This document shows positions 32,674-64,000 of a stretch of 64,000 nucleotides of DNA, piece after piece. The translations under genes were made by a program, and so were the position numbers. The DNA lies in the NCBI RefSeq assembly GCF_000226095.1, contig NC_016476.1:2852001-2916000 (forward strand). Reading direction: 5' to 3'. Position 1 is the first letter of the stretch, and each line of letters opens with the position of its first letter. This stretch comes from Thermothelomyces thermophilus ATCC 42464 (Eukaryota > Ascomycota > Sordariomycetes > Sordariales > Chaetomiaceae). Below the pieces are notes generated by a model. It ran no database searches. It saw only the letters and a program-made list of their open reading frames with translations, and was not told the DNA's origin.

Positions 32674-33749
32674 ATGTATTTAGACAGCTTCTCTAAGTGC
32701 CTCTGGCACTTAGAAGAATCAACGCTTTTATTACCTACTTCTACAGACTATAATAGTTAGTCTAGGAGTGCTGCCTATAGTGTAAATACTACTATAGTAT
32801 TGTACCTTTATAGCCTTTCTAAGCTATACTAATTATAGCTACTAAGCTATAGCAAGTAGTGCCTACTACTAGTTCGAATCTATAATCTTATTACTAATTA
32901 CAAGTGTTTAAACGCTATAGGAGACTATTTATCTAGATAAATAACTATATCCCTTTGCTTAAATAGATGCCTAAACGATTAGATATAATAGTAATAGTAA
33001 CTTTGTTAAGATCTAATAAATAAGCCTAAACTATAATAGGTATATTAGACCTATTACTTTATTGTTAAAAATGCCTATTAGCGTTAGGTTTAGAGGCTTA
33101 CTTTAATAGAACTTTAAATCCTTAAGCTAGTAGTATCCTTTAAGGAGGCTAACTAGTATTTAGCTTATATATAAGACTTTAATAACTACCTAATTAGTAA
33201 AGATTACCTAGAGTTATAGAATCTTAATAAGTATATATTAAAAGGACTTGTAAACCGCTTTATTAAGCGCTTTCTCTAGCTTTTAGACTAGGCGCTTATT
33301 TTACTATTATTATTGGAAATAAGAGCTATACTAGAAGTATGAGTTTAAGAGGAATCTTAATATAGGGGACCTTTAGAGACCCTAAAAACGTTAAGCCCTA
33401 ATAGCCTAGTTTAATAATTTACTATATTATTAGAAATAGCCTTATAAAGGATAAGTTTACTTATTAGCCTATTAGATCTACTGGAGATATTAAGGCCTAA
33501 GCTAAATTTAATAGGTCTAAGTTAATAGGGTAATTAGGCACTAAGTAGACCTATTAGAATTACCTAAAGTATAATTATAATTAATATATTAAGGGAACTA
33601 TTAGAAAGGGAAGAATCTTAATAAGGGTCTTCTTAAACCCTTTAGCTAATAGCCTATCTAATAGAAAGATCACTAATAGCAATGCTAATACTAGTAGGAG
33701 ATACCCTAATTAAGGGGTATATACCCTTCTTACTATTAGATTTAACTAA
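32674..33749 (+). mobile_element. Ty3/gypsy-like element G, left fragment (5' end and start of gag)
   Basis: From about 32674 (TGTATTTAGACAGC) the DNA turns abruptly TA-rich. The beginning holds a perfect 9-bp inverted repeat (CTAAGTGCC-TCT-GGCACTTAG, 32693-32713), probably in the element's LTR. Later sequence is mutated coding DNA on the + strand, full of TAG/TAA where CAG/TGG/CAA codons would be. It is cut at 33750-33754 by insertion of element A (TSD GGAGA) and continues at 56950. The exact LTR borders could not be fixed because no second copy is in the window. Confidence 0.6.
32693..32713. repeat. perfect 9-bp inverted repeat at the repeat-block border
   Basis: CTAAGTGCC at 32693-32701 and its exact complement GGCACTTAG at 32705-32713 are separated by TCT. 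It lies within the first 40 bases of the presumed LTR of element G. Confidence 0.8.
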
Positions 33750-33754
33750 GGAGA

Positions 33755-34207
33755 TGTAACGAACCCAGCTCAGACTTCTTCTAAAAGGGTTCAGACGAAG
33801 GTACATCAAGCGGGACAAGCGTACAGGTCGTCTAAGGGATTCGGTGAAGCCAAAGGGTTTATAACAACACTAGAGTTATCTCTTACAGTAGTTAGCGATG
33901 CTTGGTATAAGTACTGTGATTATAGGTTGCTATTACTAGTAAACTCCTAGAGTCTACTATAACGAGTGGCTATCTATATATATATATACTTCTACCGATC
34001 GCTTATAGTCCCTTTCTATTTTATCCTTAGATCGCCTTTAGTAGCTAGCTATCCTCTGCTATCTTTCCCTTTTCGGTAATCGTTTGCCTGTGGTAGCCTG
34101 TGCTCCTTAGTGATCCTGTGTTAGCTTTGCTTCGTGCCTTTCTTGATTAGTGGCTTATTTAGCCTCCTATACCCTACCAGGTCATGGTATATAGTTAGCT
34201 TGTAATA
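33755..34207 (-). repeat. 3' LTR of element A
   Basis: 453 bp, starting TGTAACGAACCC and ending GCTTGTAATA on the + strand. On the element's own strand this is TATTACAAGC...GTTACA, a mutated form of TGTCACGAGC...GTCACA seen in less mutated copies. It contains a TATATATATATATA run at about 33975. Confidence 0.88.
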
Positions 34208-37200
34208 TGATACCCCCTCTTTAGGGCTTTTAACCTGAAAGCTTCTTATAACTTTTTTTAAATACCATTAACACCCCCTTTTTCTGGTAGGTAATGTCCT
34301 TCTTCTGCTAACTTCCTTTTATTATAGCTAATTATATTCCTAGGAATCGTCGTAATCTTAAATATAAACGATACGCTATTACGATCAAGATTAAGCGAGA
34401 GGGTTATAAGGTCGCTATACCTTACAAGTATTATTAGAATATAAAGCCACGAAAGCGTTATATAATAATAGAGGGTTTAAACAAGTGTCAAAACTATATT
34501 TATATAGGTAAGAAGTGTAGTAGTCTAAATGTTATAGATACCCGTAGGTTCCTTGTTATTTTTCTTCGTAGTCTTAGGTTACTAACTATCTTAGTCCTTT
34601 TAAATTTATCAGAGTAGGAGAAGGTTTTAAGAGAGATTACTAAGACTAAGGTACTACTTGCTTAGACGCTAAGCCGTTTAAGTCGATTACGTCGTTTATA
34701 GTAATCTCTACATGATCGTAGTACTAAAGTTTTTCATCGTAGTATAGCTTATCTAGAAAAGGAGGAAGAACTAGATACTCCTTTGCTAATGTCGGAGACG
34801 TAGACCCTTATAGGTTAGGCTTAGGCGTTAAATACTTTTGACGTGCTTAATTAGGAGTCAATTAGGTTAGATCCTAGTCCTAATTCTAGTAGGTTCCCCT
34901 CTTTTTCTATTAGGGAATAGGCTTTAGAGCCGGTTCTTATAGCTAGTTAGGATTCTACTAGTAGAATTACTCTAGTTTCTTAGGGTAACTTAGATTCTTA
35001 ACTAGTTCCTATAAGTTATCTTCTAGTCTAAAATTAAGCTATTTAACTAGGTATTATAGTTCTCTATTAATAATATATAAATCTAGAATTTCTTCGATAT
35101 CCTATTCTTTCTCTTCGTCCTTTACTTCGATGTTTATAGCAATTTTAGTGTTCTTTAGCGCTAGTTCGAGAAGTGAAATATAAAAAACGTCTATCTATAG
35201 TTATATAGATGACGGTAATAATAGTCAATAGTTAGATGTCGAAATTTGTTCTTTGATAACGAAGGGTCTAACCTTCTTAAAGTTTAGCTTCGTGCTTAGT
35301 CGTTTAGTTCGCAGGTTTCGTACAATTAAGTAGACTTTGTCTCCCCTCTCTAGGCAAGGTCCCTCGAGCCTATACTTATTATAGTAGTCCTTTATTCTAG
35401 TCCTAATAAACTCGAGTTCCTTTTTAAGCTTCTCGTATGGTATATATATTTGTTCTACTTTGACTACTACTCTCGGCACTATAACCTCTAGTCCTTGCCT
35501 AAGGTCTACTTTATATCTATAGTTTGTAAAGAACGGTATAACTTTGGTCGTTTCCGTTAGTGTTATATTATAAGCAAGTTATATTATTAGTAATAGTATG
35601 ACCTAGTTGTCTTGCTAATAGTTGACGTAAGAATAAAGGTACTACTCGATAACTTGGTTTAGTCGCTCCGTTTGTCCGTCGGTTTGTAGGTAATATGCTG
35701 TTAATAGCTTGCTATTAACGCCTAATTGTTGTATTAACGCTTACTAGAACTTCGATACGAACTTGGTATCTCTATTAGTAATCTATTCTTATAGCTAAGC
35801 GTATACTAATATAACTTACTAATAGATTATGTCTACTAACTGTTCCGCTGTCTAGGACTTCTTATAGGGAAAGAAGTATGCCTATTTAGTTAGGCAGTCT
35901 ACTATAATGAGAATACTATTATAGATTACCCCTATGGCTATATCTTTAGATTCTAGTAGTTTCGTAATAAAGTCTATCGTAACTAAACTCTATAGTTTGT
36001 TAGCTATTAGCAGTAGCTAAAGTAGCCTATATAGCTTATATTGTACCGTTTTGCTTCAATTGTAGATATCGTAGCTCTGTACGACTTCCTTAACTCGTGC
36101 CGTTAACTATAGAAAGTCATAGTATTTCTTGACTTATATAACAGTCTTCGTAACTCCTTTATATCCTCCGAGTTTCGACTTATAGAGTTTTCAAATCATT
36201 TATAGCTATTGGTCTTTGTTATAGATATACGTTTTACCTTAGTACTAGAGTTTCCTATCTTTTTCTTTTACTTTATTAGGTACCGCTAGTCTAGGTATTG
36301 CTTAATACTATGCCTTGTCGATCCTTTCTTCTCGAAAGATTATATAATATTCTAGGAACGAGTCGAGTAGATCGTCTTCTATAGGTGTCTACGTTTCGTG
36401 ATATAGCGTTCCATCTATTCGTTCCTTGAATAACGGTGGCGTTATTTCCGTTTGTCCTTCTATACGATCTGTTTATCGGCTTAAGGCATCTGCTTGTATA
36501 TTCTCCTTGCCCTTCTTATAGTAGATCTTAAAATTGAATTCTACAAGGAATTCTACCTATTATATTTGTCGTCTATTAAGCTCCTTTATCATCGTAAAGT
36601 ATTATAAATTCTTATAATCTATATATACTTATACTAGTTTAATCGTACTACTAAGGTATAGTTGCTATTCTTTAAAAGCTTTAATAATTGTAAGTAGTTC
36701 CTTGTCGTAGATTAGATAATTAAGATATAGTTTATCAAGCTTCTTTAAAAAGAAGGCTATAGGATATAGCTTCCTTTGTTCGTCTTGTTATCCTAACTAT
36801 CCTCCGATGGCGTAGTCTGAAGCGTCCGTTTCTACCTTAAATGGCTTCTTAGGGTCTGGTAGCACTAGTACTAGATCTTTAGTAATGGCGTTACGGATCT
36901 ACGTAAATGCTTGCTTGTGTTACTCTTCTTATTAGAATTTAGCGTTCTTCTTAGTAAGTTCGTACAAAGGTCGTACGATTGCTCCAAAGTTCCTAATAAA
37001 TATCTGGTAGAAGTTCGTAAATCCGATGAAACTTTATACTTCTGTAACTGACGTCGGTTATAGCTAATTCTTAATAGCTTTAACTTTTAAAGGTTCTATC
37101 TAAATTTGTCCTAGGGATATCTTATATCCTAAAAATACTATCTTCCTAACGTAGAATTTACTCTTTTCCTTATTAACTAATAGCTTATATATATATAACG

Positions 37201-39884
37201 TATCTAGTACTACTTTTATATACTTCTAGTGTTTGTCTATTATCTTAGAGAAGATAAGTATATTGTCAAGATAATATACCGTAAATTTGTTAAGAAAGGG
37301 TCGGATAGCTTGATCGATCAGGGCTTAGAACGTTACTAGCGCGTTCGTAAGTCCGAATAGCATGACAAGGTACTTATAATGACTATAGGGTATTCTAAAG
37401 GCCGTTTTCTACTTGTTGCCTTCTTTGATCTATATATAGTTATAGGCCGATGGCAAGTTAAGATATATAAAGTATTAGGCTCTTACTAACTAATCTCGAA
37501 GCTATAAGATTCGTAGTAACAGGTATTAGTTTTTTATAGTCTATTTATTAAGTTACTAATAGTCAATATATAACTATAGCTTTCTATCTTTCTTAAGTAC
37601 AAATAAAATTAGGTAGCCTACTAGCGATATCGATAGATAGATATATCCTCTTTAAAGGTTCTCCTCTAAATATCGCTTAAGTTCTTCGTTCTATATCTAG
37701 CTTATATAGTAAATCTTAAAGAACTTTAGTCATGCTCCTTCCTTAAGCTTAATCTTGTGATCCTATAGACCGTGCTCTAGTAATCCTTCTAGATACTTTG
37801 GTTCGAATGCTAGGTATCCTTTGTATTCCTTTAGTACTTCCCTAGTCTTGTCTCGTCTCTTGGCTTTCTAATAGTATATAAACTTGGTTCCGTCTATAGT
37901 GATGCTAGCGATTTCTCCTGTCTCAACCTACTACTCTAGTTATAGTACTCCGTATTCGTTAATAGAGAGAATAGCTATCGGCGGTTTAGCTCGTTCCTCC
38001 TGTCATAACGTCGGTATCGTTATACCACTTCTTCTAGAGTCTATAGTAGTCTGCCTACTACTATCTGTCTCTTGTAGTAGATCCGTAGGATATGCCTTCC
38101 CCTGAGCATCGTCTGCTTACGATCCTTGTACGCTCCCTATCTCGCTAGTCGAATACGACTCCGTTTAGGGTTATAGGTAGCTACCATTCTTCTAGCTAAT
38201 GTCCGAGTTATAATCTTTATATTATAATAACCCTAATATTATATCTTTATTGTTATCTATATCTATAATACTAAATATAACTACTATAGTCTTCCTTACT
38301 ATAGTAATGTTAATCGGTTTGGTCTTCCTATATACCTATTATGTTGGAAATGGCCCTTTGACTATGCCATGCTTTTACTTTATTCTCTAGGGTATCTATA
38401 GCTAATTTATAAGCGTCGGCGAAATCAGATTTATCTCTGCTCTACTATCTACTAGTACAAGCATTTCGTACTATCTCTATTATGCTATTATCTATAGTCG
38501 CTTGTCTTGCTACCGTTGTCTAAAGATTACGGCGATTTCCTATATTTCCGCTAGAAGGTCTCGATATAGTGGTCTCTTATACTAGTTCCTCCTATATTAC
38601 GCTACCACTCGCCGCTATACAGGCGTTAATAGTTTCCAGGCCCCTCGGAAGGCCTTAACCCGTTTCCCAAGTTAGTGTTAACCTCTTCGGTTATTTGGCT
38701 AATAGTAGCTTCGTCAATCGTACTTATTTCTATAAGCCATTAAGTGCTTATAGCTTCCTACCATTAGGTCTGTTCTACTTTTCGTCGTATATACTATAGC
38801 TTCATCTAAAGTTCCTAGATCTATGATTTCTTTTTATCTACGTAATAGAGGCAGTCGTTACTCTAGCACAAGTCCTATATATCTCGTTCTATTCCGTGGT
38901 ACCTAGGCTAGGCTCGTTTTGGAACTACCGTAATGCCTTCTAGATTATAGGCTTCGATCTTCTAAAGCAATTCGGCTGCTCTGTTTCCTGTATTATAGAC
39001 CTATTCTATAGGGCAGAGGCTTCTATCCTCATTTCCTTGTCGGGTCGGCTAGTGATTGTTTTCGAATTTGTTACGAAAGTAGTATCGGCATTTGTGTAAT
39101 ATATACTAGAACTAGGGCACTTGTATATATGCCTTGTGTCGTAGGTATAGTTATATAGCGTTGCCTAGAAGGTATTAGAATTCTTTTCTAAATCCTTCCT
39201 ACTATACGTAGACTGTAGGTACTCTAATGCTAAGGTAGGAATGTTTCTTCTAGTAGTTTTCCTATATACGTTCGTCTTTTCTATAGTGTACGCATATAAA
39301 CTAATACTCTAGGTTCTATACGTTATAGCTAAGTTGCTAATCGTTAAAATACTTGGCATAGCTATTAAGCCTATTATATATCACAGGCTATTCCCCTTTA
39401 ATGGTTTCTACGATATATTAGAGTTCCCTTATCTTGTCCCTTATCTTATCGCTTTACTAGGCAAGTCGAATCAAGCGTCTATCCCATTTACGTAGTTCCG
39501 TACTAAGCCGGAAAACTTCGTTATAGTACCATTCGATTCGTTCTTAGAGGAATAGAATATTAGGTCTAGGTCTTTCGATTCCTTAGGTATCGGTTGTCTA
39601 CGATCTATCCTACCTCTAGGTAACTATAAAACCCTACTGCCTTAGGGCTAGGAGAATCGAAATTGGTAATATATACTCTCCTGCCATATCCTATTTGGCA
39701 AGACCTATCTCTAGGTCTACCATAACTAGTTTAGAGTATAGTACTTATTTGTCTTTACCGTTGCTGTCGTATCTAAGACTAACTATATTACTATCCCTAT
39801 CTTCGTAGCTTGTAGCCGCTACTTTAATAATATCCTTAGTAGTTTTGTCAATAGCTATAATTTCCTTTCTAGGGACTGTTTTCT
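34208..39884 (-). pseudogene. RIP-degraded gag(3' part)-pol of element A
   Basis: Read on the minus strand from high to low coordinate: gag 3' part (39884 to about 39000), a protease-like region near 38450, RT with YLDN at about 37255-37285 (YLDD in B and C), RNase H (about 36500-36900), integrase (about 35300-36300; GDKVYLIVRNLRTKRLSTKL at about 35280-35340) and a chromodomain relic near 35050-35110. Stops occur every few dozen codons, mostly TAG/TAA where CAG, TGG or CAA stand in related copies. The longest intact stretch is 84 codons (35225-35479). No functional product is expected. Confidence 0.85.
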
Positions 39885-40342
39885 TATTACAAGCCAACTA
39901 TATATCGCGACCTGGTGAGGCATAGGAGGCTAAATGAGCCACCAATCAAGAAGGGCACAAAGCAAGGCTAATATAAGATCGCTAGGGAGCACAGGCTATT
40001 ATAGGCAAACGATTGCCAAAAGGGAAAGATAGCAGAGGATAGCTAGCTACTAAAGGCAATCCAAGGACAGGATAAAAGGAGACTATAAGCGATCGGCAGA
40101 AATATATATATATATAAATAGCCACTTGTTATAGTAGACTCCAGGAAGTTCACTAGTAATAGTAACCTAACCTACAATTACAGTACTTATACCAAGCATT
40201 ACTAACTATTATAGGAGATAACTCTAGTATTATTATAAACCCTTTAGCTTTACCAAATCCCTTAGACGACCTATATACTTATCCTACTTAATTTACCTCT
40301 ATCTAAACCCTTTTAGAAGAAGTCTAAGTTAGGTTCGTTATA
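39885..40342 (+). repeat. 5' LTR of element C
   Basis: 458 bp, TATTACAAGCC...GTTCGTTATA, a mutated TG...CA LTR. It contains a TATATATATATAAATAG TATA-like stretch at about 40107-40127. Confidence 0.9.
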
Positions 40343-43300
40343 TGTTGCTATTACTCCCTTTGTTTTGTCATAGCTTAGAACAGAGGTAATTTCGACCTTG
40401 ACATCAATATAGCTACTAACGTTACGGCCAAATAGCTACTTGCCTAGCTCGGTCAACTCTAGTAACGGATCTAGGAGTTAGACTAGAGAGATAAGGTTGC
40501 TTAAGCTCGGATCAAGGAACTCGAAAACGGCGAAAAGCACTTATAGAAGCTAGTTAACAAGGCCTACGCCAAAATTAAGGCACTCGAGGGCGCCAAAGCG
40601 AGCCGCATTAAGATCGAACTACCTAGCAAATACGGAGGAACTAAGGAAGATCTTATAGGATTCCTAACGAACCTCCGATCTTACTTCTAGCTTAATGATG
40701 ACAAGTTTCTGGATAATAAAGCTAAAGTCCTCTATATAGCTATAAGACTAGAGGGCAAGGTATTTAGATAGTTTAAGCCTATATAGAATGACTATCTTAT
40801 TAAAGAAGACGAAGATAACTAAGATATATTTATATAGGTAGTCTTTTAATCCTATGACTAGTTTAAAGAAGAGCTTTAGAAGGTTTTTAGCAATAAAGAT
40901 AAGAAGATTTATATATAAGAAAGACTTGCTAATCTCTAATGGACTAAGTTAGTAGCCTCCTATACTATATAGTTTAGATAGGATATACTTAAGTCTTAGC
41001 TTAACAATAAGGCATTAATATAACTATTTTATAATGGCTTAAAGGAAAAGGTTAAAGACAAACTATATAAGTATGACTAGCCTAAGACTCTAGATAAATA
41101 TATTATATAGGCTATTAGAATCGATAATCGACTCTATATACGAGAGTAGTAGAAACGAGGTCAGATAAACGGAACTATAGTCAAGGCTAACGATAAGAAA
41201 AAACGAGTATATGTTAGCATATTACATAGGACGTATCCTAAAGCTATAGATATAGATGTAGCATAGAAGTAGGACAAGAAAAAGACGGCTAAAGATAAGT
41301 CTAACGTTACTAGCTATAACTATAGAAAGAAAGGACACTATAAACAAGAATATCGAAGCCCAAAGAAGGACTAGAAACCAGTCCCTAGGAAGGAAATTAC
41401 GGCTATTAACGAAACCGCCAAGGATATTATCAAAGTAGCGGCTACGAGCTACAAGAATAGGGATAACGACACGGACAGTCTTAGATACGACGGCGATAGT
41501 AAAGACGAACAAGCACTATACTCCGAACTAGTTACTATAGACCTAGAAACAGGTCTTGCCAAATAGGATATAGTAAGAGAATATACACTACTAATTTCGA
41601 TTCTCCTAGCCTTAAGGCAGTAGGGTTTTATAGTTACCTAGAGGTAGGATAGATCGTAGACGACCGATACCTAAGGAATTGAAAAACCTAGACCTAATAT
41701 TTTATTCCTCTAGGAATAAATCAAATAGTACCGTAACGAAGTTTTCCGGCTTAATATAAAACTATACGAACGGGATAGACGCTTGATTTGACTTATCTAG
41801 TGGAGTAATAAAATAAGGGACAAGATAAAGGAACTCTAATATATCGTAAAAACTATTAAAGGGAAACAGCCTATAATATACAATAGGCCTAATAGCTATA
41901 CTAAGTATTTTGATAATTAGTAACTTAGCTATAACATATAGAACCTAGAGTACTAGTTTATATACGCGAACTATAAAAAAGACAAATATACGTAGGAAAA
42001 CTACTAGAAGAAATACTCTTACCTTAGCATTAGAGTACCTACAGTCTATATATAGTAGGAAGGATTTAGAAAAGAATTCTAATACCTTCTAGGCAACGCT
42101 ATATAACTATATCTACGATACGAGGTATATATACAAGTGCCCTAGTTCTAGTATATGTTATACAAATACCGATACCACTTTCGCGACAAATTCGAAAATA
42201 ATCACTAGCCGACCCGACAAGGAAATAAGGACGGAAGCCTCTACCCTATAGAATAGGTCTATAATGTAGGAAATAGAGCGGCCAAATTGCTCTAGAAAAT
42301 CGAAGCCCGCGATCTAGAAGGCATCATAGTAGTACTAAAACGAGCCTGGCTTAGGCACTATAGAATAGGACAAGATATATAAGACTCGTGCCGAAGTAAC
42401 GACTGCCTCTACCACGCAGACGAAAAGAAATCGCAGATCTAGGAGCTTTAGATAAAGCTATAGTACGTATGATAGAAAGTAGAACGGACCTAATGGTGGG
42501 AAGCTGCTAGCACTTAATGGCTTATAGAAATAAGTACGATCGACGAAGCCGCTATTAGCCGGACAACCGAAGAGGTTAGCACTGACCTAGGAAACGGGTC
42601 AGGGCCCTTTAAGGGGCCCGAAAACCATTAACGCCTGTATAGCGACAAGTAATAGTATAGTATAGGAGGAACTGGTGTAAGAGACTACTATATCGAGACC
42701 TCCTAGTAGAAATATAGGAAATCGCCGTAATCTTTAGACGACAGCGGCAAGACAAGCGATTATAGATAACAATATAATAGAAATAGCACGAAATGCTTAT
42801 ACTAATAGATAGTAAAGTAGAGATAAACCTAATTTCGCTAATACTTGTAAATTAGCTATAGATACCTTAGAGAATGAAGTAGAAGCATGGTATAGTTAAA
42901 GGGCCATTTCTAATATAATAGGTATATAAAGAGACTAAACTAATCAATATTACTATAGCAGGGAAAACTATAGTAGTTATATTTAGCACTATATATATAG
43001 GCAATAATAAAGATATAATATTAGGATTATTATAGTATAAAGATTATAACCTAGACATTAGCTAGAAGAATAGTAGCCACCTATAACCCCGAACGGAGTT
43101 ATATTTGACTAGTAAGATAAGGAGTACATAAGGATCGCGAGCAGACAATACTTAGGGGAAGGCATATCCTATAGATCTACTACAAGAGACGGACAATAGT
43201 AGGTAGACTACTACGGACTCTAGAAGAAGCGGCATAACGACACCAACATTACGATAGGAGGAACAAGCTAAACTACCGATAGCTATTCTCTCCGTTAACG

Positions 43301-43505
43301 AATATAGAGCACTATAACTAGAGTAGTAGGTTAAGATAGGAGAAATCGCTAGCATCGCTATAGTCAGAACCAAGTTTATATACTATTAGAAAGCCGAGAG
43401 ACAAGACAAGACTAGGGAAGTACCAAAGGAATATAAAGGACACCTAGCATTTAAACCGAAGCATCTAGAAAGATTACTAGAACACGGTCTATAGGATTAC
43501 GAGAT
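40343..43505 (+). pseudogene. RIP-degraded gag and protease of element C (upstream half)
   Basis: The gag start codon is ATA at 40409-40411, where element B has ATG. A well conserved helix follows at 40540-40780 (KYGGTKEDLIGFLTNLRSYF). The zinc knuckle at about 41314-41370 reads YNYRKKGHYKQEYRSPK, with Cys codons turned to Tyr (TGY to TAY). A protease motif is at about 42795-42830 (LIDSKVEINLIS, where DSGAE is expected). Sequence runs to 43505 and is then broken by element B within the beginning of the RT domain. Confidence 0.85.
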
Positions 43506-43923
43506 TGTGACGAACCCAACTCAGACTTCTTCTAAAAGGGTCCAGACGGAGGTAGGTTAAGCGTGACGAGCAGGCAGGTCGTCTAAGGGATTCGGTAAAG
43601 CCAAAGGGTTCATAACAACACTAGAGTTGTCTCTCACAGTAATCAGCAATGCTTAGTATAAGTACTGTGATTATGATTGTTACCACTGGTAAACTCCTAG
43701 AGTCTACTATGACGAGTGACTATCTACATGTATATATAATCCTAGTGATTACTCCTAATCACGGTGATCGTGAGTAATCGCATGGTGGTGATCACCCTGA
43801 TCGCTAGTGAGCGTAATGATCACTGTACTTCCTATGTTGTAATTAGTCCTTCCGTTCCTTCGGCTTGATTGGCCCGTTTGTGCCGGTGGCCTAGGCAGCA
43901 TCTGTATACATATTTCCATGACA
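43506..43923 (-). repeat. 3' LTR of element B
   Basis: 418 bp. The right-hand part on the + strand (43737-43923), which is the 5' (U3) portion on the element's strand, is unlike the LTRs of A, C, D and F. It carries a hairpin GTGATTA-CTCC-TAATCAC (43745-43762) and the palindrome GGTGATCACC (43787-43796). The other part (43506 to about 43736) matches the other LTRs closely. Confidence 0.9.
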
Positions 43924-50995: not shown

Positions 50996-51000
50996 GAGAT

Positions 51001-51019
51001 TAAGCTTAAGGAAGGAGCA
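51001..51019 (+). pseudogene. 19-bp sliver of element C between two insertions
   Basis: TAAGCTTAAGGAAGGAGCA is all that remains of C between B (with its TSD) and D. Together with the flanks at 43505 and 51475 it restores an uninterrupted reading frame at the start of the RT domain (KLKEGA), which confirms both insertion events. Confidence 0.85.
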
Positions 51020-51469: not shown

Positions 51470-51474
51470 GAGCA

Positions 51475-54400
51475 CGACTAAAGTTCTTTAAGATTTACTA
51501 TATAAGCTAGATATAGAACGAAGAACTTAAGCGATACTTAGAGGAGAATCTTCGAAGAGGATATATTTATCTATTGATATTACTAGTAGGCTACCTAATC
51601 CTATTTGTGCCTAAAAAAGACAGAAAGCTATAATTATATATTGACTATCGGTAACTTAACAAACAGACTGTAAAAAACCGATACCTATTACTACTAATTT
51701 CATAGCTCCGAGATTAGTTAGCAGGAGCCTAATATTTCATACGTCTTGACTTACTATTAGCCTATAACTATATATAGATTAAAGAAGGCGACGAGTAGAA
51801 AACGGCCTTTAGGACACCCTATAGCCACTATAAGTACCTCGTTATACCATTTAGACTTATAAATACACTAGTAACGTTCCAAGCCCTAATTAATCAAGCT
51901 ATCTAATCCTTTCTTAACAAATTTACAATATGTTATCTTGACGATATACTTATCTTTTCCAAAACAATAGACAAATACTAGAAGTATATAAGAGTAATGC
52001 TAGATATATTATACGCGTATAAGCTATTAGTTAATAAGGAAAAGAGCGAATTTTACGTTAGGAAGATAGTGTTTTCAGGATACAAAATATCCCTAGGACA
52101 AATCCAGATAGAACCTTTGAAGGTCAAAGCTATCAAGGATTAGCTATAACTAACATTAGTCACGGAAGTACGAAGTTTCATTAGATTTACAAACTTCTAT
52201 TAGATGTTCATTAGGAACTTTAGAGCGATCGTACGACCTTTATACAAACTTACTAAGAAGAACGCTAAATTCTAATAAGAAGAGCAACACAAGCAAGCAT
52301 TTACGTAGATCCGCGACGCCATTACTAAAGATCTAGTACTAGTACTACTAGACCCTAAGAAGCTATTTAAGGTAGAAACGGACGCTTTAGACTACGCCAT
52401 CGGAGGATAGTTAGGATAATAAGACGAACAAGGGAAGCTATATCCTATAGCCTTCTTTTTAAAGAAGCTCGATAGACTATATCTTAATTATCTAATCTAT
52501 AACAAGGAACTACTTATGATTGTCAAAGCTTTTAAGGAATGGTGACTATACTTTAGTAGTATGATTAAACTAGTATAAGTATATATAGATTATAAGAATT
52601 TGCAATACTTTATAACGACAAAGGAGCTTAATAGACGACAAATATAATAGGTAGAATTCCTTATAGAATTTAATTTTAAGATCTGCTATAAGAAGGGTAA
52701 AGAGAACATACGAGCAGACGCCTTAAGCCGACGAACGGATTATACAGAAGAATAAACGGAAATAATACTACTATTATTTAAGGAACGAATAAATAGAACG
52801 CTATATTACGAAATACAGATACTTATAGAAGATGACCTACTCGACTTATTCCTAGAATGTTATATAATCTTTTAAGAAGAAAGGATTAACGAGGTATAGT
52901 ATCAAGTAATACCTAGACTAGTAGTACCTAATAGAGTAAAAGAAAAAGATAGGAAACTCTGGTACCGAGACAAAGCGTATATTTACGATAAAGATCAATA
53001 GCTACGAATGATTTAAGGACTCTACGAGTCGAAACTCGGAGGATATAAAGGAATTACAAAGACTATCGCACAAGTCAAAAAACACTATAACTTTCTACAG
53101 TTAACGATACGAGTTAAGGAAGTCGTATAGAACTATAATATCTATAATCGAAGCAAAACGGTACGATATAAGCCGTATAGGCTACTTTAGCCACTACTAA
53201 TAGCCGACAAACTATAGAGCTTAGTTACGATAGACTTTATTACGAAACTGCCAGAATCTAAGGATATAGCCATAGGGGTAATCTATAATAGTATTCTCAC
53301 TATAGTAGACTGCCTAACTAAATAGGTATACTTCTTTCCCTATAAGGAGTCCTAGATAGCGGAACAGTTAGTAGACGTAATCTATTGGCAAGTCGTATTA
53401 GTATACGCTTAGCTATAGGAATAGATTACTAACAAAGATACCAAGTCCGTATTAAAGTTCTAGCAAGCGTTAATATAACGATTAGGCATTAATAGCAAGC
53501 TATTAACGGCATACTACCTACAGACTAACGGACAAATGGAATGACTAAACCAAGTTATCAAGTAGTACCTCTGTTCTTACGTTAACTACTAGTAGGACGA
53601 CTAGGTTATACTATTACTAACAATATAACTCGCTTATAATATAATGCTAACGAAAATAACCAAAGTCATACCATTCTTTATAAACTATAGATATAAAGCA
53701 GACCTTAGGCAAGGACTAGAGGTTATAGTGCTAAGAGCAGTAGTTAAAGTAGAACAAATGTATATACTATATAAGAAGCTCAAAAAAGAACTCGAGTTTA
53801 TTAGAACTAGAATAAAGAACTACTATAATAAATATAGGCTTAAGGGACCTTGCCTAAAGAGGGGAGACAAAGTCTACCTAATCGTACGAAACCTACGAAC
53901 TAAACGACTAAGCACGAAGCTAGACTTTAAGAAGGTCAGACCCTTCGTTATCAAAGAACAAATCTCGATATCTAACTACTAACTATCGTTACCATTATCT
54001 ATATAACTATAGACAAATGTTTTTTATATTTCACTTCTCGAACTAGCGCTAAAGAACGCTAAGGTTGTTATATATATCGAAGTAAAGGATAAAGAGAAAG
54101 AATAGGACATTAAAGAAATCCTAGATTTATATATTATTAATAGAGAACTATAATACCTAGTCAAATAGCTTGATTTTAGACTAGAAGATAACTTATAGGA
54201 ACTAGTTAAGAATCTAAGTTACCCTAAGAAACTAGAATACTTCTACTAGTAAAATCCTAACTAGCTATAAGAATCGGCTCTAAAGCCTATTCCCTAATAG
54301 AAAAAGAGGGGAACCTACCAAAATTAGGACTAGGATCCAACCCAATTAACTCCTAATTAAGTATATCAAAAGTACCTAATACCTAAGCCTAACCCGTAAG

Positions 54401-55003
54401 GGTCTACGTCTCCGATATCGGCAAAGGAGTATCTAGCTCTTCCTCCTTCTCTAGACAAGCTACGCCACGATAAAAAACCTTAGTACCACGATCGTGTAGG
54501 GATTGCTACAAACGACGTAATCGACTTAAACGGCTTAGTGTCTAAGCAAGAAGCGCCTCGGTCTTAGCAATCTCTTTCGAAACCTTCTCTTACTCCGATA
54601 AATTCGAAAGGACTAAGATAGTTAGTAGCCTAGGACTACGAAGGAAAATAATAAGGAACCTATAGGCATCTATAACGTTTAGGCTACTATACTTCTTGCC
54701 TATATAAATATAGTTCTAACACTTGTTTAAACCCTCTATTATCATATAACGCTTTTATAGCTTTATATTCTAATAACGCTTATAAGGTATAGCGACCTTG
54801 TAACCCTCTTGCTTAATCTTAATCATAATAGCGTATCGTTTATGCTTGAGATCGCGACGGTTCCTAGGAACACGATTAGCCATAGTAGAAGGAAGCTAGC
54901 GGAAAAAGGACGTTATCTATAGGAAAAGAAAAAGGGGTATTAATAGTATTTAAAACAAGTTATAAGAAGCTTTCGGGTCGAAAGCCCTAAAGAGGGGGCA
55001 TCG
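51475..55003 (+). pseudogene. RIP-degraded RT, RNase H, integrase and chromodomain of element C (downstream half)
   Basis: The RT fingers/palm begin at about 51480 (FVPKKDRKLQLYIDYRQLN at about 51608-51660), and YLDDILIF lies at 51928-51955. RNase H follows (about 52330-52720; ETDALDYAIGG). The integrase zinc domain (about 53030-53190; GGYKGITKTIAQVKKHYNF) and DDE core (about 53225-53600; IDFITKLPESKDIAIGVIYN) are recognisable. The integrase C-terminus is open from 53644 to 53982. A chromodomain relic lies at about 54110-54250 (EILDLYIINREL, LDFRLEDNL). In-frame TAG/TAA codons interrupt every domain. Confidence 0.87.
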
Positions 55004-55461
55004 TATCACGAGCTAACTATATACTACGACCTGGTAGGGCACAAGAGGCTAAATAAGCTACCAATCAAGAAGGGCATAAAGCAAGGCTAACATAGGATCG
55101 CTAGGGAGCGCGGGCTACTATGGGTGAACGATTGCCAAAAGGGAAAGATAGCAGAGGATAGCTAGCTACTAAAGGCGATCCAAGGATAGGATAGAAGGGG
55201 ACTATAAGCGATCGGCAGAAGCATATATATATATAAATAGCCACTCGTTATAGTAGACTCTAGGAAGTTCCCTAGTAATAGCAACCTAACCTATAATTAT
55301 AGTACTTATACCAAATATTACGAACTATCATAGGAGATAACTCTAGTATTATTATAAACCCTTTGGCTTTACCGAATCCCTTAGACGACCTATACGCTTG
55401 TCCCGCTTAATTCACCTCTGTCTAAACCCTTTTAGAAGAAGTCTAAGTTAGGTTTGTTATA
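55004..55461 (+). repeat. 3' LTR of element C
   Basis: 458 bp, the same length as the 5' LTR, TATCACGAGC...GTTTGTTATA, followed by TSD TTTCT. Differences from the 5' copy appear to be transitions. Confidence 0.9.
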
Positions 55462-56496
55462 TTTCTACTCTTTCCTCGGGCTTTAATATTCTTGCTTGTA
55501 ATGCCCTTTCTTTCTATAGTTATAGTAGGTAACATTAGACTTGTCTTTAGTCGTCTTCTTTCGGTCCTACTTCTATGCTATATCTATATCTATAGCTCTA
55601 GGATACGTCCTATACGAGGTATTAACATATGCTCGTTTTTTCTTGTCATTAGCCTTAACTATAGTTCTATTTATTTGACTTTGTTTTTACTACTCTTGTA
55701 TATAGAGTCGATTATTAATTCTAATGGCCTATATAATATATTTATCTAGGGTCTTAGGCTGGTTATACTTATATAGCTTGTCTTTAACCTTCTTCTTTAA
55801 GCTATTATAGAATAGTTATATTAATGCCTCGTCGTTAAGCTAAGACTTAAGTATGTCCTATCTAAACTATATAACGTAGGAGGCTACTAACTTAGTCTAT
55901 TAGAGACTAGCAAGTCTTTCTTATATATAAATCTTCTTGTCTTTATTACTAAAAACCTTCTAAAGCTCCTCTTCAAAACGGTTATAGGATCAAAAGACTA
56001 CTTATATAAACGCGTCTCGGTCGTCTTTATCTTCCTTAGTAAGATAGTCGTTCTATATAGGCTCGAACCATCTAAGTACCTTGCCCTCTAGTCTCGTAGC
56101 TATATAGAGGACTTTAGCTTTATTGTCCGGAAACTTGTTATCATTAAGCCGAAAGTAAGATTAGAGGTTTATTAGGAATCCTATAAGATCCTCCTTAGTT
56201 CCTCTATATTTACCAGGTAGTTTGATCTTGATGCGGCTCGCTTTAGCGCCTTTAAGTGCCTTGATTTTAGCGTAGGCCTCGTTAACTAGCTTCTACAAGT
56301 GCTTTTTGCCGTTCTCGAGTTCCTTGATCCGAGCTTAAGCAGCCTTGTCTCTCTAGTCTAACTCCTAGATCCGTTAATAGAGTTAACCAAGCTAGGTAAG
56401 TAGCTATTCGGCCGTAACGTTAGTAATTATGTCGATATCGAGGTCGAAATTACCTTCGTCCTAAACCATAATAGAATAAAAGGAGTGATAGCAACA
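55462..56496 (-). pseudogene. 5' part of gag of element A (beyond insertion C)
   Basis: Minus-strand continuation of A's gag, joining the segment that ends at 39884. The zinc-knuckle region lies at about 55540-55467, the conserved helix block at about 56290-56060, and the start codon position (56430-56428) reads ATA where B has ATG. Multiple stops are present. Confidence 0.8.
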
Positions 56497-56949
56497 TATA
56501 ACGAACCTAGCTTAGACTTCTTCTAAAAGGGTTTAGACGAAGGTATATTAAGCGAGACAAGTGTACAGGTTGTCTAAGGGATTTAGTAAAGCTAAAGGGT
56601 TTATAACAACATTAGAGTTGTCTCTTACAATAGTTAGTAATACTTGGTATAAGTACTATGATTATAGGTTGCTATTACTAGTGAACTCCTGGAGTCTACT
56701 ATAACGAGTGGCTATCTATATATATATATACTTCTACCGATCGCTTATAGTCCCCTTCTATCCTGTCCTTAGATCGCCTTTGGTAGCTAGCTATCCTCTG
56801 CTATCTTTCCCTTTTCGGCAATCGTTTGCCTGTAGTAGCCTATGCTCCCTAGCGATCCTGTATTAGCTTTGCTTCGTGCCCTTCTTGATTGGTGGCTCAT
56901 TTAGCCTCCTGTGCCCTACTAGGTCGCGGTATATGGTTAGCTCGTAATA
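56497..56949 (-). repeat. 5' LTR of element A
   Basis: 453 bp, TATAACGAACC...GCTCGTAATA on the + strand, followed by TSD GGAGA at 56950-56954. It pairs with 33755-34207. Confidence 0.9.
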
Positions 56950-56954
56950 GGAGA

Positions 56955-59216
56955 CAATTATAAGATTATTCTAATAGGCTATAGTTAGACTCCTATAGAA
57001 TATTATAACTAAACTAATAGATATTAGTTCCCTTTAGCTATAGCTAGTATATATATTATTATAATTAGCTATTAACTAGGTATAGAAGGTTATTAATATT
57101 GGCCTACTCTGGCTCGATACCGATTAAAAGATTACTAATAGCTAGCTAATCTTCTATTATAAGAAGATCTGTTACTATATAGATATTAACCTCTAGATTA
57201 GGTATATTTGTAATATAGTTAGAGGAAATGTCTCTAAGGAACTCTTTCTATAGAATGACCTATAGGTATTATTTCATAGGTTAGTACTATAGTAGTATAA
57301 ATAGTAATTATTACCTACTAAGAAAGAGACCCCCTACTTAAGTATAGAGATATAGCTCTAAAGGATTAAGGAATAGTTTAGCATCTAGTTTAATTAGATA
57401 GGCTAATAGCTAGTTTAGAATAGCTATACTAAGGATAACCTTATCATAGGTAAATTAATCTACGAATTTGCGATAGACCTTTTCTATTATGCCTAAGTCT
57501 AGGGAGATAAGATAAACCATTAGCTTTTGACTAGACTTTAGTTAGCGATAACCTTAGCGCTCTATAAGCTCTGTCCTAAGCTATAGGAAATAAATATACT
57601 TAACTAATACCTCCTTTATGTCACCGAAAAATAGGAGGCACTCTCTAAAGAGCTTAAAGCTAAAAGAAGGGTATAGAAAGCTACTATATTTAACGTTAAA
57701 GATACTCCTAATAGACTAAGCGGTAGTAATAGTAATAGTGCTTCCGAAGATCAAGCTAATTAGTCACGTACTAAGCTAAGACAGGGTAATTAAGGCTAAT
57801 AGTACTGGTCTAACTACTATAGGCAGAGAGAGGAATGGAAATATAGATATCTTCTATAAGGAGAGTAATACCGAAGCTAGGATTAGGAGCCTCGCTTAAA
57901 AGACTATAACGATAACGATAGGGGTAACCGTTCCTAGGGCACTAGACCCTAAGAGAAGGGCAGATATAGCAAATGGAATCCCTACTTCTAACAGTTTTAT
58001 TACTATAGCTAGAAGTATATTAATAAGGATAGTACCTATTACTACTATAATATAGTAATAGTGTCTAGTAAAGACAAGAAAGCCAAAGCCGAATATAAGG
58101 AACTTAAAGCTATTAGCTACCTCCTAATTAGTAACTATAAATCTAAGACCAATAGAGATGGTAGTAATAGAGAGGCGTACTTCCTTAGTATCATTAAGGA
58201 AGACTATAATGTCTATAGGCTTTGTAAATAGTCATTCGTAAGCTAAGGAGTGTTATACCGCTACCTACATCAGGATTATAGAAAGAAATTACGCTTACCT
58301 AAACTGCCAAAGGAGGACCTTCCCTAGATAGAACGGGACTTCGTAGAAGGAGCGGCTATACCGTTAGAATTACCCGAGGAACCATAATAACAGGAAATCA
58401 TACTCCTGTCCTTCGAGCCTAGCCAAGTAATAAAAGCCAACCCGAGTATAGAAATACCTTTCTACTAGCTAAGGAAAACGTCTTACCTATATATTCTCTG
58501 GTTTAAGCCAACCTAGGAGACTAGACTATAGATATCTATTTTAATATAGGCAGTTTAACCAACCTAGTTAACTAGATATAGATCTCCTAATGGGTAAAGA
58601 ATCCTTGATAGATTAAGGGCAAGCCTTATACTCTTAAGGGAGTTAATTCGAGGACTAGGATTAGCGAACAGGTCGAATTTGACTTCTATATCCTAGGGGA
58701 AACCAGGAATACGCCTATTAATAGATATATCTATATTATAGCTAATATTATCGATAAACTTGCTCTAAAAATGCTCCTAGGCACTGACTTTATAACGGCT
58801 TATAATGTCAAGATTGACTTTATCAAGGGCATTTATACCTTTAGATCGCTAGTAAATATAAAGGTTTATAGGGACGTTATAAAGAAGAACCCTAAGCTTA
58901 TCTCTTAGAAGGTTACTACTATTTAGTATACTATTATTCTTATATACTCTACCTAGATAGTTAAGACTTACTTTATTCTATTGCCTAATAGTATCTTAGA
59001 GGACAAGTACTTCTACTTTACTACTAGCCGAGACAGAATCTAGGATGCTATAGTTAATCGGTATATACCCTAGGTAGCTATCGTTAGAAATGATACTAAT
59101 ACCCCCATAATTATCCGGAAAAGAGATAAGATTAGCTACCTCCTAGAATACTATAGGGAAAATACCACTACCTAAGTTAATATAAGTAATATAGAGGATA
59201 TATAGATGTGACGAAC
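56955..59216 (+). mobile_element. Ty3/gypsy-like element G, right fragment (gag, protease, PR-RT spacer)
   Basis: Continuation of the element interrupted at 33750. A degraded zinc-knuckle (YYYSQKYINKDSTYYY-like, Cys codons turned to Tyr) is at about 57990-58050. An aspartic-protease tail is at about 58755-58860 (LKMLLGTDFITAYNVKIDF). A spacer with the pattern of fungal gypsy PR-RT linkers (RYIPQVAIVRNDTNTPIIIR) is at about 59060-59120. It is cut by element F at 59217, before RT. It is a different family from A, B, C and F, judged by its unrelated gag and leader. Heavily mutated. Confidence 0.75.
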
Positions 59217-59658
59217 CCAGCTTAGACTGCTTCCAAAAGGGTTCAGACAAAGGTAAATTAAGCAGGACAAACAGGCAGGTCGTCTAAGGGATTCGGTAAA
59301 GCCAAAAGGTTTATGACAACACTAGAGTTATCTCTTATAGTAATTAGCAATGCTTAGTATAAGTACTGTAATTATAGGTTGCTATCACTAGTAAACTCCT
59401 AGAGTCCACTATAACGAGTGACTATTTATATATATATATACTTCTGTTGATTGCTTATAGTCCCCTTTTATCCTGTCCTTAGATCGCCTTTGGTAGCTAG
59501 CTATCCTCTACTATCTTTCCCTTTTAGCAATTGTTTGCCTGTAATAGCCTGTGCTCCCTAGCGATCCTATATTAGCCTTGCTTCGTGCCCTTCTTGATTG
59601 GTAGCTTATTTAGCCTGCTATACCTTACCGGGTCGCGGTATATAGTTAGCTTGTAATA
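59217..59658 (-). repeat. 3' LTR of element F
   Basis: 442 bp, TGTGACGAACCCAGC...GCTTGTAATA on the + strand, of the A/C/D type with a TATATATATATA run near 59431. Confidence 0.88.
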
Positions 59659-62600
59659 CGATGCCCCCTCTTTAGGGCTTTTGACCTAAAAGCTTCTTAT
59701 AACTTATTTTAAATACTACTAATACCCCTTTTCCCTAGTAAGTAATGTCCTTTTTCTGCTAGCTTCCTTATGCTATAGCTAATTATATTCCTAGGAATTG
59801 TCGTAATCTTAAATGCAAACGATACGCTATTACTATTAAGATCAAGCGAGAGGGTTACAAGGTCGCTATACCTTATAAGCGTTATTAGAATACGAAGCTA
59901 TAAAAGCATTATATAATGATAAAGGGTTTAAATAAGTATTAAAACTATATTCGTATAGGTAAGAAGTATAGTAGTTTAAACGTTATAGATGCCTATAGGT
60001 TCCTTATTATTTTCCTTTATAGTCTTAGGTTGCTAACTATCTTAGTCCTTTTAAATTTATTAGAATAGGAGAAGGTTTCAAGGGAAATTACTAAGACTAA
60101 GGCATTACTTGCTTAGATACTAAGCCGTTTAAGTCGATTACGTCATTTATAGCAATCCTTATATAATCGTAGTGCCGAAGTTTTTTGTCATAGTATAGCT
60201 TGTCTAGAAGAGGAGGAAGAACTAGATACTCCTCTGCCGATGTCAGAGACGTAGACCTTTATAGGTTAGGCTTGGGCGTTAGGTACTTTTGACGTGCTTG
60301 ATTAGGAGTCGATCGGGTTAGATCTTAGTCCTAATTCTAGCAGGTTCCCTTCTTTTTCTATTAGGGAATAGGCTTTAGAGCCGGTTCTTATAGCTAGTTA
60401 GGATTCCGCTAATAGAACTACTCTAGTTTCTTAAGGCAATTTAGGTTCTTAATAGGTTCTTATAAGTTATCTTCTAGTCTAAAATCAAGCTATTTAACTA
60501 GGTATTATAGTTTTTTGTTAATAATATATAAATCTAGAATTTCTTTAACGTCCTATTCTTCTTCTTTGTCCTCTACTTCGATATATATAGTAATCTTGGC
60601 ATTTTTTAGTACTAGTTCAAGAAGTGAAATATAAAAAATATCTATCTATAGTTATATAGATAATGGTAACGATAGTTAATAGTTAGGTATCGAAATTCGT
60701 TCTTCGATAATAAAGGGTCTAACCTTCTTAAAGTCTAGCTTCGTGCTTAGTTGTTTAGTTTATAAGTTTCATACGATTAGGTAGACTTTGTCTCCCCTCT
60801 CTAGGTAAGATCCTTCGAGCCTATGTTTGTCGTAGTAATTTTTTATTTTAGTCCTAATAAACTCGAGTTCCTTTTTAAGTTTCTTATATAGTATATATAT
60901 TTGTTCTGCTTTAACTGCTACTCTTAGTACCGTGACCTCTAGTCCTTATCTAAGGTCTGCTTTATATCTATAGTTCGTAAAGAATGGTATAACTTTGGTT
61001 GTTTTTGTTAGCGTTATATTATAAGCGAGTTATACTATTAGTAATAGTATAACCTAATCGTTTTGCTAGTAGTTGATGTAAGAACGGAGATATTGCTTGA
61101 TAACTTGGTTTAGTCGCTCTGTTTGTCTATCAATCTATAGGTAATATGCCGTTAACAGCTTGCTATTAACGCCTAATCGTTATATTAACGTTTGCTAGAA
61201 CTTTAATACAAACTTAGTATCTCTATTAGTAATCTATTCTTATAGTTAAGCATATATTAATATAACTTGCTAATAGATTATATCTATTAGCTATTTAGCT
61301 ATCTAGGATTCTTTATAAGGAAAGAAGTATACCTATTTAGTTAGGCAATCTACTATAGTAAGGATACTATTATAGATCACTCCTATAGCCGTGTCCTTAG
61401 ATTCTAGCAGCTTTATAATAAAGTCTATTGTAACCGAGCTCTATGGTTTGTTAGCTATTAGTAGTAGCTAAAGTAGCCTATACGGCTTGTATCGTGCCGT
61501 TTTGCTTCGATTGCAAATGTCGTAGTTCTATACAACTTCCTTAATTCGTGCCGTTAACTATGGAAAGTCGTAGTGTTTCTTGACTTGTACGACAGTCTTT
61601 ATAACTCCTTTATATCCTCCGAGTTTCGACTTGTGGAGTTCTCGAATCATCTATAGCTGTTAATCTTTGTCGTAGATGTATGCTTTGCCTCGGTACTAAA
61701 GTTTCCTATCTCTTTCTTCTACTTCGTTAGGTACTAGTAGTCTAGGTATTGCTTAATACTATATTTTATTAATCCTTTCTTTTTAAAAGATTATATAATA
61801 TTCTAGGAATAAGTTAAGTAGATTATCTTCCATAAGTGTCTACATTTTATAATATAGCGTTCTGTCTATTTGTTCTTTAAATAATAGTAGTGTTATTTCC
61901 GTTTGTCCTTCTATATAATCTGTTTATCGGCTTAAGATGTCCGCTTATATATTCTCTTTGCCCTTCTTATAGCGGATCTTAAAGTTAAATTCCGTGAGGA
62001 ATTCTACCTATTATATTTATTATCTATTAAGCTCCTTTATCGTTATAAAGTATCGTAAATTCTTATAATCTATATATACTTATACTAGTTTAATCGTATC
62101 GCTAAGGTATAGTCACTATTCCTTGAAAGCTTTGATAATTATAAGTAGTTCCTTGTTATAGATCAGATAATTAAGACATAGTCTATCGAGCTCCTTTAAA
62201 AAGAAGGCTATAGGATGTAGCTTTCCTTGTCTGTCTTGTTATCCTAATTGTCCTCTAATAGTATAGTCTAAAGCGTCCGTTTCTACCTTGAATAGCTTCT
62301 TAGGGTCTAGTAGTACTAGTACTAGATCTTTGGTAATAGCGTCGCGGATTTGCGTAAATGCTTGCTTATGTTACTCTTCCCATTAGAATTTAGTATTTTT
62401 CTTAGTAAGTTTATATAAAGGTTATATAATCGCTCTAAAGTTCCTAATAAATATTCGGTAGAAGTTTATAAATCCGATGAAACTTCGTACTTCTATAACT
62501 AATATTAGTTAGGGCTAATTCTTGATAGCTTTAACCTTTGAAGGTTCTATCTAGATTTGTCCTAGGGATATTTTATATCTTAAAAAGACTATCTTCCTAA

Positions 62601-64000
62601 TATAGAATTTGCTCTTTTTCTTGTTAACTAATAGCTTATATATATATAGCGCGTCTAGTACTGCTTTTATATACTTCTAGTGTTCGTCTATCGTCTTGGA
62701 GAAGATAAGTATGTTGTCGAGATAATATACTGTAAATTTGTCGAGAAAGGGTCGGATAGCTTGATTAATTAGGGCTTAGAACGTTACTAGCGCGTTTGTA
62801 AGTCCGAATAGCATGACGAGGTACTTGTAGTAGCTATAGGGTATCCTAAAGGCCGTTCTCTACTTGTCGCCTTTTTTAATCTATATATAGTTATAGGCTG
62901 ATAGTAAGTCAAGATATGTAAAATATTAGGCTCTTACTAACTAATCTTAGAGCTATAAGATTAGTAGTAACAGGTATTAGTTTTTTATAGTCTGTTTGTT
63001 AAGTTACCAATAGTTGACGTATAACTATAGCTTTCTATCTTTCTTAGGTACAAATAGAATTAGGTAGCCTACTAGTAATATTAATAGGCAGATATATCCT
63101 CTTCAAAGGTTCTCCTCTAAATATTATTTAAATTTTTCGTTCTATATCTGGCTTGTATAGTAAATCTTAAAGAACTTTAGTTATACTCCTTCCTTAAGCT
63201 TGATCTTATAATCCTATAGGCCGTGTTCTAGTAGTCCTTCCAGATATTTCGGTTCGAATGCTAGGTGTCCTTCGTATTCCTTTGGTACTTCCCTAGTCTT
63301 GTCTTGTCTTTTGGTTTTCTAATAGTATACGAACTTGGTTCTATCTATAGCGATGCTAGCGATTTCTCCTATCTTAACCTACTACTCCTATTATAGTACT
63401 CCGCATTTGTTAACGAAGAGAACAGCTATCGGTGGTTTAGCTTGTTCCTCCTATCATGATATCAATATCATTATACTGCCTCTTCTAGAGTCTATAGTAG
63501 TCTGCCTATTACTGTCCGTCTCTTGTAGTAGATCTGTAAGATATGCCTTTCCTTAAGTATCGTCTGCTTATAATCTTTACGTGCTCCTTATCTCGCTAAT
63601 TAAATATAACTCTATTTAGGGTCGTAAGTAGCTACTATTCTTCTAGCTAATATCCAGGTTATAGTCTTTATACTATAGTAACCCTAATATTATATCTTTA
63701 TCATTACCTATATCTACAATATTAAATATGATTACTATAATCTTCCCTACTATAGTAATATTAATCGGTTTAGTCTCCCTATATACTTATTACGTTAGAA
63801 ATGGCCCTTTAACTATACTATACTTCTACTTTATTCTCTAGGGTATCTATAGCTAATTTATAAGTATTGGCGAAATTAGGTTTATCTCTACTCTATTATC
63901 TACTGGTATAAGCATTTTATACTGTTTTTACTATGCTATTATCTATAATTGCTTGTCTTACCACCGTCGTCTAAAGATTACAGCGATTTCCTATATTTCT
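59659..64000 (-). pseudogene. RIP-degraded pol of element F (partial)
   Basis: On the minus strand from the window edge downward: a protease region near 63900, RT with YLDN at about 62735-62700, RNase H (about 61950-62350), integrase (about 60700-61700) and a chromodomain relic (about 60560-60480). Every domain has premature stops. gag and the 5' LTR lie outside the window. Confidence 0.83.

What the first reader, a model, noticed from the sequence alone, without database searches (positions are those of the whole stretch)
32674..64000. Fully resolved four-layer nest of gypsy elements, each layer dated by its own TSD
LTR ends and 5-bp duplications fit together exactly: G split by A (GGAGA), A by C (TTTCT), C by B (GAGAT) and by solo LTR D (GAGCA), and G again by F. 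Net lengths after removing inserts are 7.6, 7.6 and 7.5 kb for A, C and B. This gives a strict relative insertion order within one locus (G, then A, then C, then B and D; F only after G) and a natural series for measuring RIP load against insertion order.
Basis: seen in the sequence. Interest (0 to 1): 0.8.

Follow-up and report, generated by a model that had tools for sequence, protein, structure and literature searches.

The report
Retrotransposons nested four layers deep
A block of jumping genes inserted one inside another in a fungal chromosome is as described, and in the sample examined the older layers tend to carry more of the fungus's own defensive mutations than the layers inserted into them, although nests of this kind are already known in fungi.

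Summary
The nest is real. Own lengths of A, C and B are 7613, 7627 and 7490 bp. Other copies run uninterrupted across the empty sites. Beyond the window G ends in its own LTR, with TSD CAGTG on both sides, and holds one more insert, H. So the ~48.8 kb AT-rich island is one nest of seven insertions with identical 5-bp TSDs. Corrections: TSDs prove insertions but date nothing; A and B are coded on the minus strand, C on the plus; B and D are not ordered. RIP tends to follow nesting: in 10 of 10 same-family full host/insert pairs, from here and 200 kb of contig C1, the host has the higher RIP index (9 of 10 on derived sites). Here C>B is clear, A and C tie. LTR pairs differ by 817 transitions but 5 transversions, so RIP carries nearly all the divergence. 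Nested fungal LTR clusters with TSDs are published: a new member of a known kind.

The parts
32597..32601 (.). left copy of the outer target-site duplication CAGTG (right copy at window-equivalent 81404-81408)
32602..32854 (.). left LTR of outer element G, 253 bp; partner LTR ends at window-equivalent 81403
32855..33754 (.). G internal piece 1, with the GGAGA copy at 33750-33754
33755..39884 (-). element A, left piece (LTR 33755-34213 plus internal part); coding strand minus
39885..43505 (+). element C, left piece (LTR 39885 to about 40343); coding strand plus
43506..50995 (-). element B, uninterrupted, 7490 bp, LTRs 43506-43923 and 50578-50995, TSD GAGAT; gag-like piece 50149-50415, RNase H piece 46328-46561, integrase SH3 piece 44765-45265
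51001..51019 (+). short piece of C between B and D (includes one GAGCA copy), collinear with A, F and B
51020..51469 (.). solo LTR D, 450 bp, TSD GAGCA
51475..55461 (+). element C, right piece (LTR about 55001-55461)
55467..56949 (-). element A, right piece with LTR 56496-56949
56955..59206 (.). G internal piece 2, with the ATAGA copy at 59202-59206
59207..64000 (-). element F, uninterrupted, continues to window-equivalent 66819; TSD ATAGA; strand taken from its collinearity with A

Best explanation
The island is a nest built by repeated retrotransposition into one site of gene-bearing DNA. An LTR element (G) inserted once. Three elements then entered G (A, F, H), C entered A, and B and D entered C; D is now a solo LTR. 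Shown: the junctions, TSDs, collinear halves and order. RIP (C-to-T mutation of repeated DNA before meiosis) loaded the layers, and hosts tend to be ahead of their inserts. Shown as a trend: host above insert. Inferred: that D lost its body by recombination between its LTRs, that the gap in load reflects the number of sexual cycles, and that hosts were at least partly RIPed before they received their inserts.
For: Junctions and TSDs. Other copies continuous across the sites. RIP index by layer: A 1.22, C 1.15, B 0.93, D 0.53, F 1.12, G 1.37, H 1.42, flanks -0.48 and -0.69. A coordinate-only parser over 344 kb (window plus 280 kb fetched) placed 22 full and 2 solo family members, all with exact TSDs; 6 of 52 LTR anchors stayed unplaced. 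In 10 of 10 full-full nested pairs the host has the higher RIP index (sign test p=0.002); shuffling the values over the 22 elements gave this in 288 of 200000. Derived-site fraction: 9 of 10, Wilcoxon p=0.0039. Of 8 informative TSD positions, 3 carry the RIP-type base in both copies, among them the first T of TTTCT in A, and none is discordant.
Against: A and C tie on derived sites, one C1 pair is close (0.453 against 0.448), and the pairwise count has C slightly more mutated than A. The 10 pairs come from 8 hosts, and C is both host and insert. F carries more derived sites than A or C though nesting does not make it older. Elements of mixed LTR subtypes are compared. The TSD evidence rests on 8 informative positions of 60. 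The parser selects for matching TSDs. Host tracts next to junctions are not spared, but by the same measure element ends are not spared either, so that test does not tell whether RIP came before or after insertion.
Confidence: 0.8

Rival explanations
1. All layers piled up in one burst without sex, and RIP then mutated the finished nest at once; differences in load are noise or subfamily composition.
For: LTR pairs of the 22 elements are almost free of transversions (817 transitions, 5 transversions in 8972 columns), so ordinary substitution gives no age gap. A and C tie.
Against: Host above insert in 10 of 10 full pairs by RIP index, 288 of 200000 by label shuffling. RIP-type bases shared by both TSD copies at 3 of 8 informative positions, 0 discordant; small numbers.
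Confidence: 0.15
2. The block is a misassembly of similar repeats.
For: The LTR-end pattern of this family matches 1782 places in the genome, which makes assembly hard. Reads were not available.
Against: Seven insertions each have an exact 5-bp TSD, which false joins would not be expected to produce. Copies in the block differ by about 8-25%, so they do not collapse easily. The genome of the likely species is called telomere-to-telomere in PMC4761134 (passage seen).
Confidence: 0.03
3. RIP load differs between host and insert because of subfamily, copy number or chromatin context, not age.
For: B differs from A, C and F in LTR type. Solo LTRs are reported as mostly little RIPed in crapaud (PMC10787394, section 11 read), which could explain D without youth.
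Against: The order also holds for one pair with the same LTR type (C1:9554 host 0.776, 10994 insert 0.710, both B-type; for type, for index); for A and C, both A-type, the index agrees but derived sites tie.
Confidence: 0.2

Closest known systems
Nested LTR-retrotransposon clusters of Mycosphaerella graminicola (PMC4522978; section 8 read, other passages seen)
   Same: An LTR element is the base, other elements lie inside it in several levels, short TSDs bound the base, and GC drops across the cluster; one published cluster is 47 kb with TSD TGGAA, much like this 48.8 kb nest with CAGTG.
   Different: Here A, B, C, D and F belong to one very abundant family, so host and insert can be compared for RIP load site by site. 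The parts of that paper I saw give no such comparison.
crapaud LTR retrotransposon of the Podospora anserina complex (PMC10787394; abstract, section 11 and passages seen)
   Same: An abundant LTR family in a fungus with RIP, with subfamilies that differ in one half of the LTR; solo or fragment LTRs there are mostly little RIPed, and D here has a low index.
   Different: Homology with crapaud was not tested. In the passages seen, nesting order is not used as a time axis.
Ty3/gypsy (Metaviridae) LTR retrotransposons
   Same: LTRs with TG..CA ends, 5-bp TSDs, and the order gag, RNase H, integrase in B.
   Different: The copies here carry many RIP-type changes and only short open frames were found. 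No chromodomain was found in the pieces tested.

Membership tests
Ty3/gypsy LTR retrotransposon (A, B, C, F) | paired LTRs with TG..CA ends and a short TSD | tested here: met
   terminal bases are RIP-changed in some copies (right end of A, both ends of C)
Ty3/gypsy LTR retrotransposon (A, B, C, F) | integrase downstream of RT-RNase H (unlike Copia) | tested here: met
   B, minus strand: gag-like DUF4939 at 50415-50149, RNase H at 46561-46328, integrase SH3_Tf2-1 at 45265-44765; the RNase H piece matches Ty3 RT/RNase H, E=3.1e-05. In A and C only the SH3 piece was tested and it scores below the Pfam cut-off (27.9 and 22.3 bits against 30); F was not tested by protein, only by DNA collinearity.
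Ty3/gypsy LTR retrotransposon (outer element G) | Ty3-type reverse transcriptase | tested here: inconclusive
   LTR pair of 253 bp and TSD present; no Pfam hit for the pieces scanned; weak match to Ty3 RT/RNase H, E=0.02
chromovirus (gypsy with an integrase chromodomain) | chromodomain at the integrase C terminus | tested here: inconclusive
   only short open pieces scanned; no chromodomain hit
RIP-mutated DNA | C-to-T transitions in repeats, with high TpA/ApT and low (CpA+TpG)/(ApC+GpT) | tested here: met
   RIP index 0.53 to 1.42 by layer against -0.48 and -0.69 in the flanks; 817 transitions to 5 transversions between LTR pairs
RIP-mutated DNA | mutations arise before meiosis through the RIP machinery (RID/DIM-2) | not tested
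   the genes were not sought here; PMC7882544 (passage seen) places Thermothelomyces thermophila among genomes with more than 10% RIP

The most novel reading that the evidence does not exclude
RIP stratigraphy: where RIP outruns ordinary mutation, nested insertions of one family form a layered record in which each layer was mutated before the next arrived, so nesting order plus RIP load counts sexual cycles over a span too short for the substitution clock. The two TSD copies preserve the host's RIP state at the moment of insertion. Within each element the outward-facing end of an LTR is less RIPed than the same stretch of its partner, which could mark where homology recognition fades.
Probability: 0.45. 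Interest if true: 0.55.

Novelty: new member of a known kind. Interest (0 to 1): 0.38.

Why it matters
Nested LTR clusters are ordinary in fungi, so the structure itself is not news. What is useful is that the order inside such nests is known independently of any clock. That lets one ask directly how quickly RIP loads a new copy, whether old copies saturate, and whether insertion and sexual cycles alternated. The likely species is described as lacking a functional sexual cycle (PMC4761134, passage seen); yet in G, A, C, B and F the two LTRs, identical at insertion, now differ by 31 to 45 transitions, so, if this is RIP, each passed through sexual cycles after it inserted.

Tried and rejected
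Rfam scan of the window: 0 matches. Tandem repeats: 6 short arrays, none bearing on the nest. Identical TSDs as proof that hosts were RIP-saturated: by the 5-mer identity of LTR pairs 13.2 of 22 were expected identical and 22 were, but the parser selects for matching TSDs and only 8 of 60 TSD positions (12 inserts in full hosts) were informative, so it is suggestive only. Host tracts beside junctions as a test of RIP before insertion: not spared (131 of 237 derived, 124.5 expected at 40 bp; p=0.012 for excess at 150 bp), but element outer ends are not spared by this measure either (414 of 781, 367.1 expected at 80 bp, p=0.0024 for excess), so the test does not discriminate. Only the comparison of outer with inner LTR copies shows sparing. 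Transversions as an age for each layer: 0 to 2 per LTR pair, too few. Target-site preference: insertion positions are spread out except B and D, 19 bp apart in C; not pursued. Literature on RIP load against nesting order: the listings showed nothing I recognised as such a test; most listed papers were not opened. PMC12543289 was searched for passages only and gave nothing relevant. One search failed on its search term.
Full report
WHERE IT IS. The window is C5:2852001-2916000 of a 38,744,216-base genome in 7 contigs. The best matches of a flanking eIF3B gene are from Thermothelomyces fergusii and Corynascus sepedonium, both 95%. Size fits Myceliophthora (Thermothelomyces) thermophila ATCC 42464, given as 38.7 Mb and telomere-to-telomere in PMC4761134 (passages seen). 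I recall the exact base count as that strain's, but no call confirmed the species. In 1-kb steps GC is 47-70% left of 32 kb and 32-43% inside the block; right of the island it is 48-64% in 2-kb steps.

THE OBSERVATION. Self-comparison shows the LTR copies and the collinear halves. Junction sequences give exact ends and 5-bp duplications for A (GGAGA), C (TTTCT), B (GAGAT), D (GAGCA) and F (ATAGA). C's piece between B and D is collinear with the same place in A, F and B. G's LTRs are 253 bp; the left one starts at 32602, the right one ends at window-equivalent 81403, both flanked by CAGTG. A further element, H, lies in G at window-equivalent 71729-78986 with TSD ATAGC (read by eye) and LTRs of about 0.33 kb at 83%. 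The AT-rich island of 48,802 bp is therefore one nest: G holds A, F and H; A holds C; C holds B and D.

INDEPENDENT CHECK WITHOUT EXCISION. Matches of G elsewhere in the genome run on across the A-site in 22 of 42 non-own rows, across the F-site in 18 of 32 non-own rows, and across the H-site in 10 of the 28 rows that cover G (counted; search tables are capped). The stretches fetched, chosen among the continuous ones, show 10 of 10 empty A-sites, 9 of 9 empty F-sites and 1 of 1 empty H-site.

WHAT THE ELEMENTS ARE. Open pieces of B on the minus strand match gag-like DUF4939, RNase H and the integrase SH3 domain in Ty3/gypsy order. A's integrase piece is also on minus and C's on plus; F is collinear with A in the same orientation. 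The LTR-end pattern, with up to 2 mismatches, occurs 1782 times in the genome against 1 for the reversed control. B differs from A, C and F in one half of the LTR. D has 0 transversions to B in the shared half but an A-type other half, with 2-3 transversions to A, C and F there and 44 to B. Two open pieces in the G parts, and others in G and H, give no Pfam match above the cut-off; one G piece has a weak match to Ty3 reverse transcriptase (E=0.02).

RIP AND ORDER. RIP index by layer is G 1.37, H 1.42, A 1.22, C 1.15, F 1.12, B 0.93, D 0.53, flanks -0.48 and -0.69. G and H are other families and not strictly comparable. D's index equals that of one B LTR (0.28 and 0.53 for the two), so RIP does not order B and D. 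Pairwise counts show B clearly less mutated than A, C and F, F more mutated than A and C, and C slightly more than A. A coordinate-only parser placed 22 full and 2 solo elements with exact TSDs, none needing a mismatch; 6 of 52 LTR anchors stayed unplaced. The host has the higher RIP index in 13 of 13 nested pairs, 10 of them with both partners full. On sites where at least 2 of 6 or more other copies show the alternative base, C or G being taken as ancestral, the host is more derived in 9 of 10; A and C tie at 0.542 and 0.544. Label shuffling reproduced 10 of 10 in 288 of 200000. The 10 pairs come from 8 hosts, and C serves as both host and insert.

THE CLOCK. LTR pairs of the 22 elements differ by 817 transitions and 5 transversions in 8972 aligned columns (one pair contributes only 53 columns because its LTR is interrupted). 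Ordinary substitution thus barely resolves these insertions; nearly all divergence is RIP-type.

BEFORE OR AFTER. At 8 informative TSD positions of 60, 3 are RIP-type in both copies and none is discordant; 4.2 derived would be expected if hosts already had their present load. One of the 3 is the first T of A's TTTCT, where 14 of 20 other copies have C, so A was most simply already mutated there when C arrived. Numbers are small. Host sequence beside junctions is as derived as the rest of the host or slightly more, but so are element ends by the same measure, so this does not tell before from after.

ENDS OF ELEMENTS. The outward-facing 64 columns of LTRs are richer in GC than the same stretch of the partner LTR in 36 of 42 comparisons and poorer in 6 (21 of 22 full elements usable; p=2.8e-6). 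Among discordant sites the mutated copy is the inner one in 63-83% in the distance bins up to 210 bp. In G, 11 left and 11 right LTRs differ in the same sense in the first 64 and last 66 columns (p=0.0045 and 0.0008) and not significantly in the two middle bins (p=0.11 and 0.15). In Zymoseptoria tritici new RIP mutations were most frequent in the distal windows of LTR elements (PMC10294615, passages seen); that compares ends with the interior, not outer with inner LTR ends, so the two need not conflict.

COMPARISON WITH WHAT IS KNOWN. PMC4522978 (section 8 read) describes 78 nested clusters in M. graminicola; 49 have an LTR base, 35 of these with verified TSDs, one of 47 kb. It also cites nests in other fungi including N. 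crassa (passage seen). PMC10787394 (section 11 read, abstract and passages seen) reports LTR subfamilies differing in one half of the LTR and mostly little-RIPed solo LTRs in Podospora. PMC7882544 (passage seen) lists T. thermophila among genomes with more than 10% RIP. The nest is an ordinary structure, well resolved; the host-above-insert RIP trend is the part worth following.

Noticed in passing
L001 7729 to L002 4986 (window-equivalent 71729-78986): Element H, a third abundant LTR family, inserted in G outside the window with TSD ATAGC; part of it matches A, C, B and F at 57-58% DNA identity.
   Followed up: partly
window 32602-32854 and L002 7151-7403; LTR pairs of 21 elements: The outward-facing end of an LTR is less RIPed than the same stretch of its partner LTR, in G copies and in the A/B/C/F family.
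   Followed up: partly
window 51020-51469 compared with 43506-43923 and 33755-34213: Solo LTR D looks like a mosaic: no transversions to B-type in one half, A-type in the other half, as if LTR subtypes exchange halves.
   Followed up: partly
window 43501-51019 in C: B and D inserted 19 bp apart in C although independent (different TSDs, different LTR type).
   Followed up: no
hosts: 9 of 12 inserts lie in the opposite LTR orientation to their host; too few to call a bias.
   Followed up: no
C1:380625-388639 (122625-130639 of the fetched stretch): A solo LTR with TSD CTTCT that is itself split by a full element.
   Followed up: no
C5:2850191-2850442: A lone G-type LTR match (92%) lies just left of the window.
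   Followed up: no
L003 157-1566 and 2735-4375: Genes right of the island encode a TCP-1/cpn60 chaperonin subunit and eIF3B.
   Followed up: no
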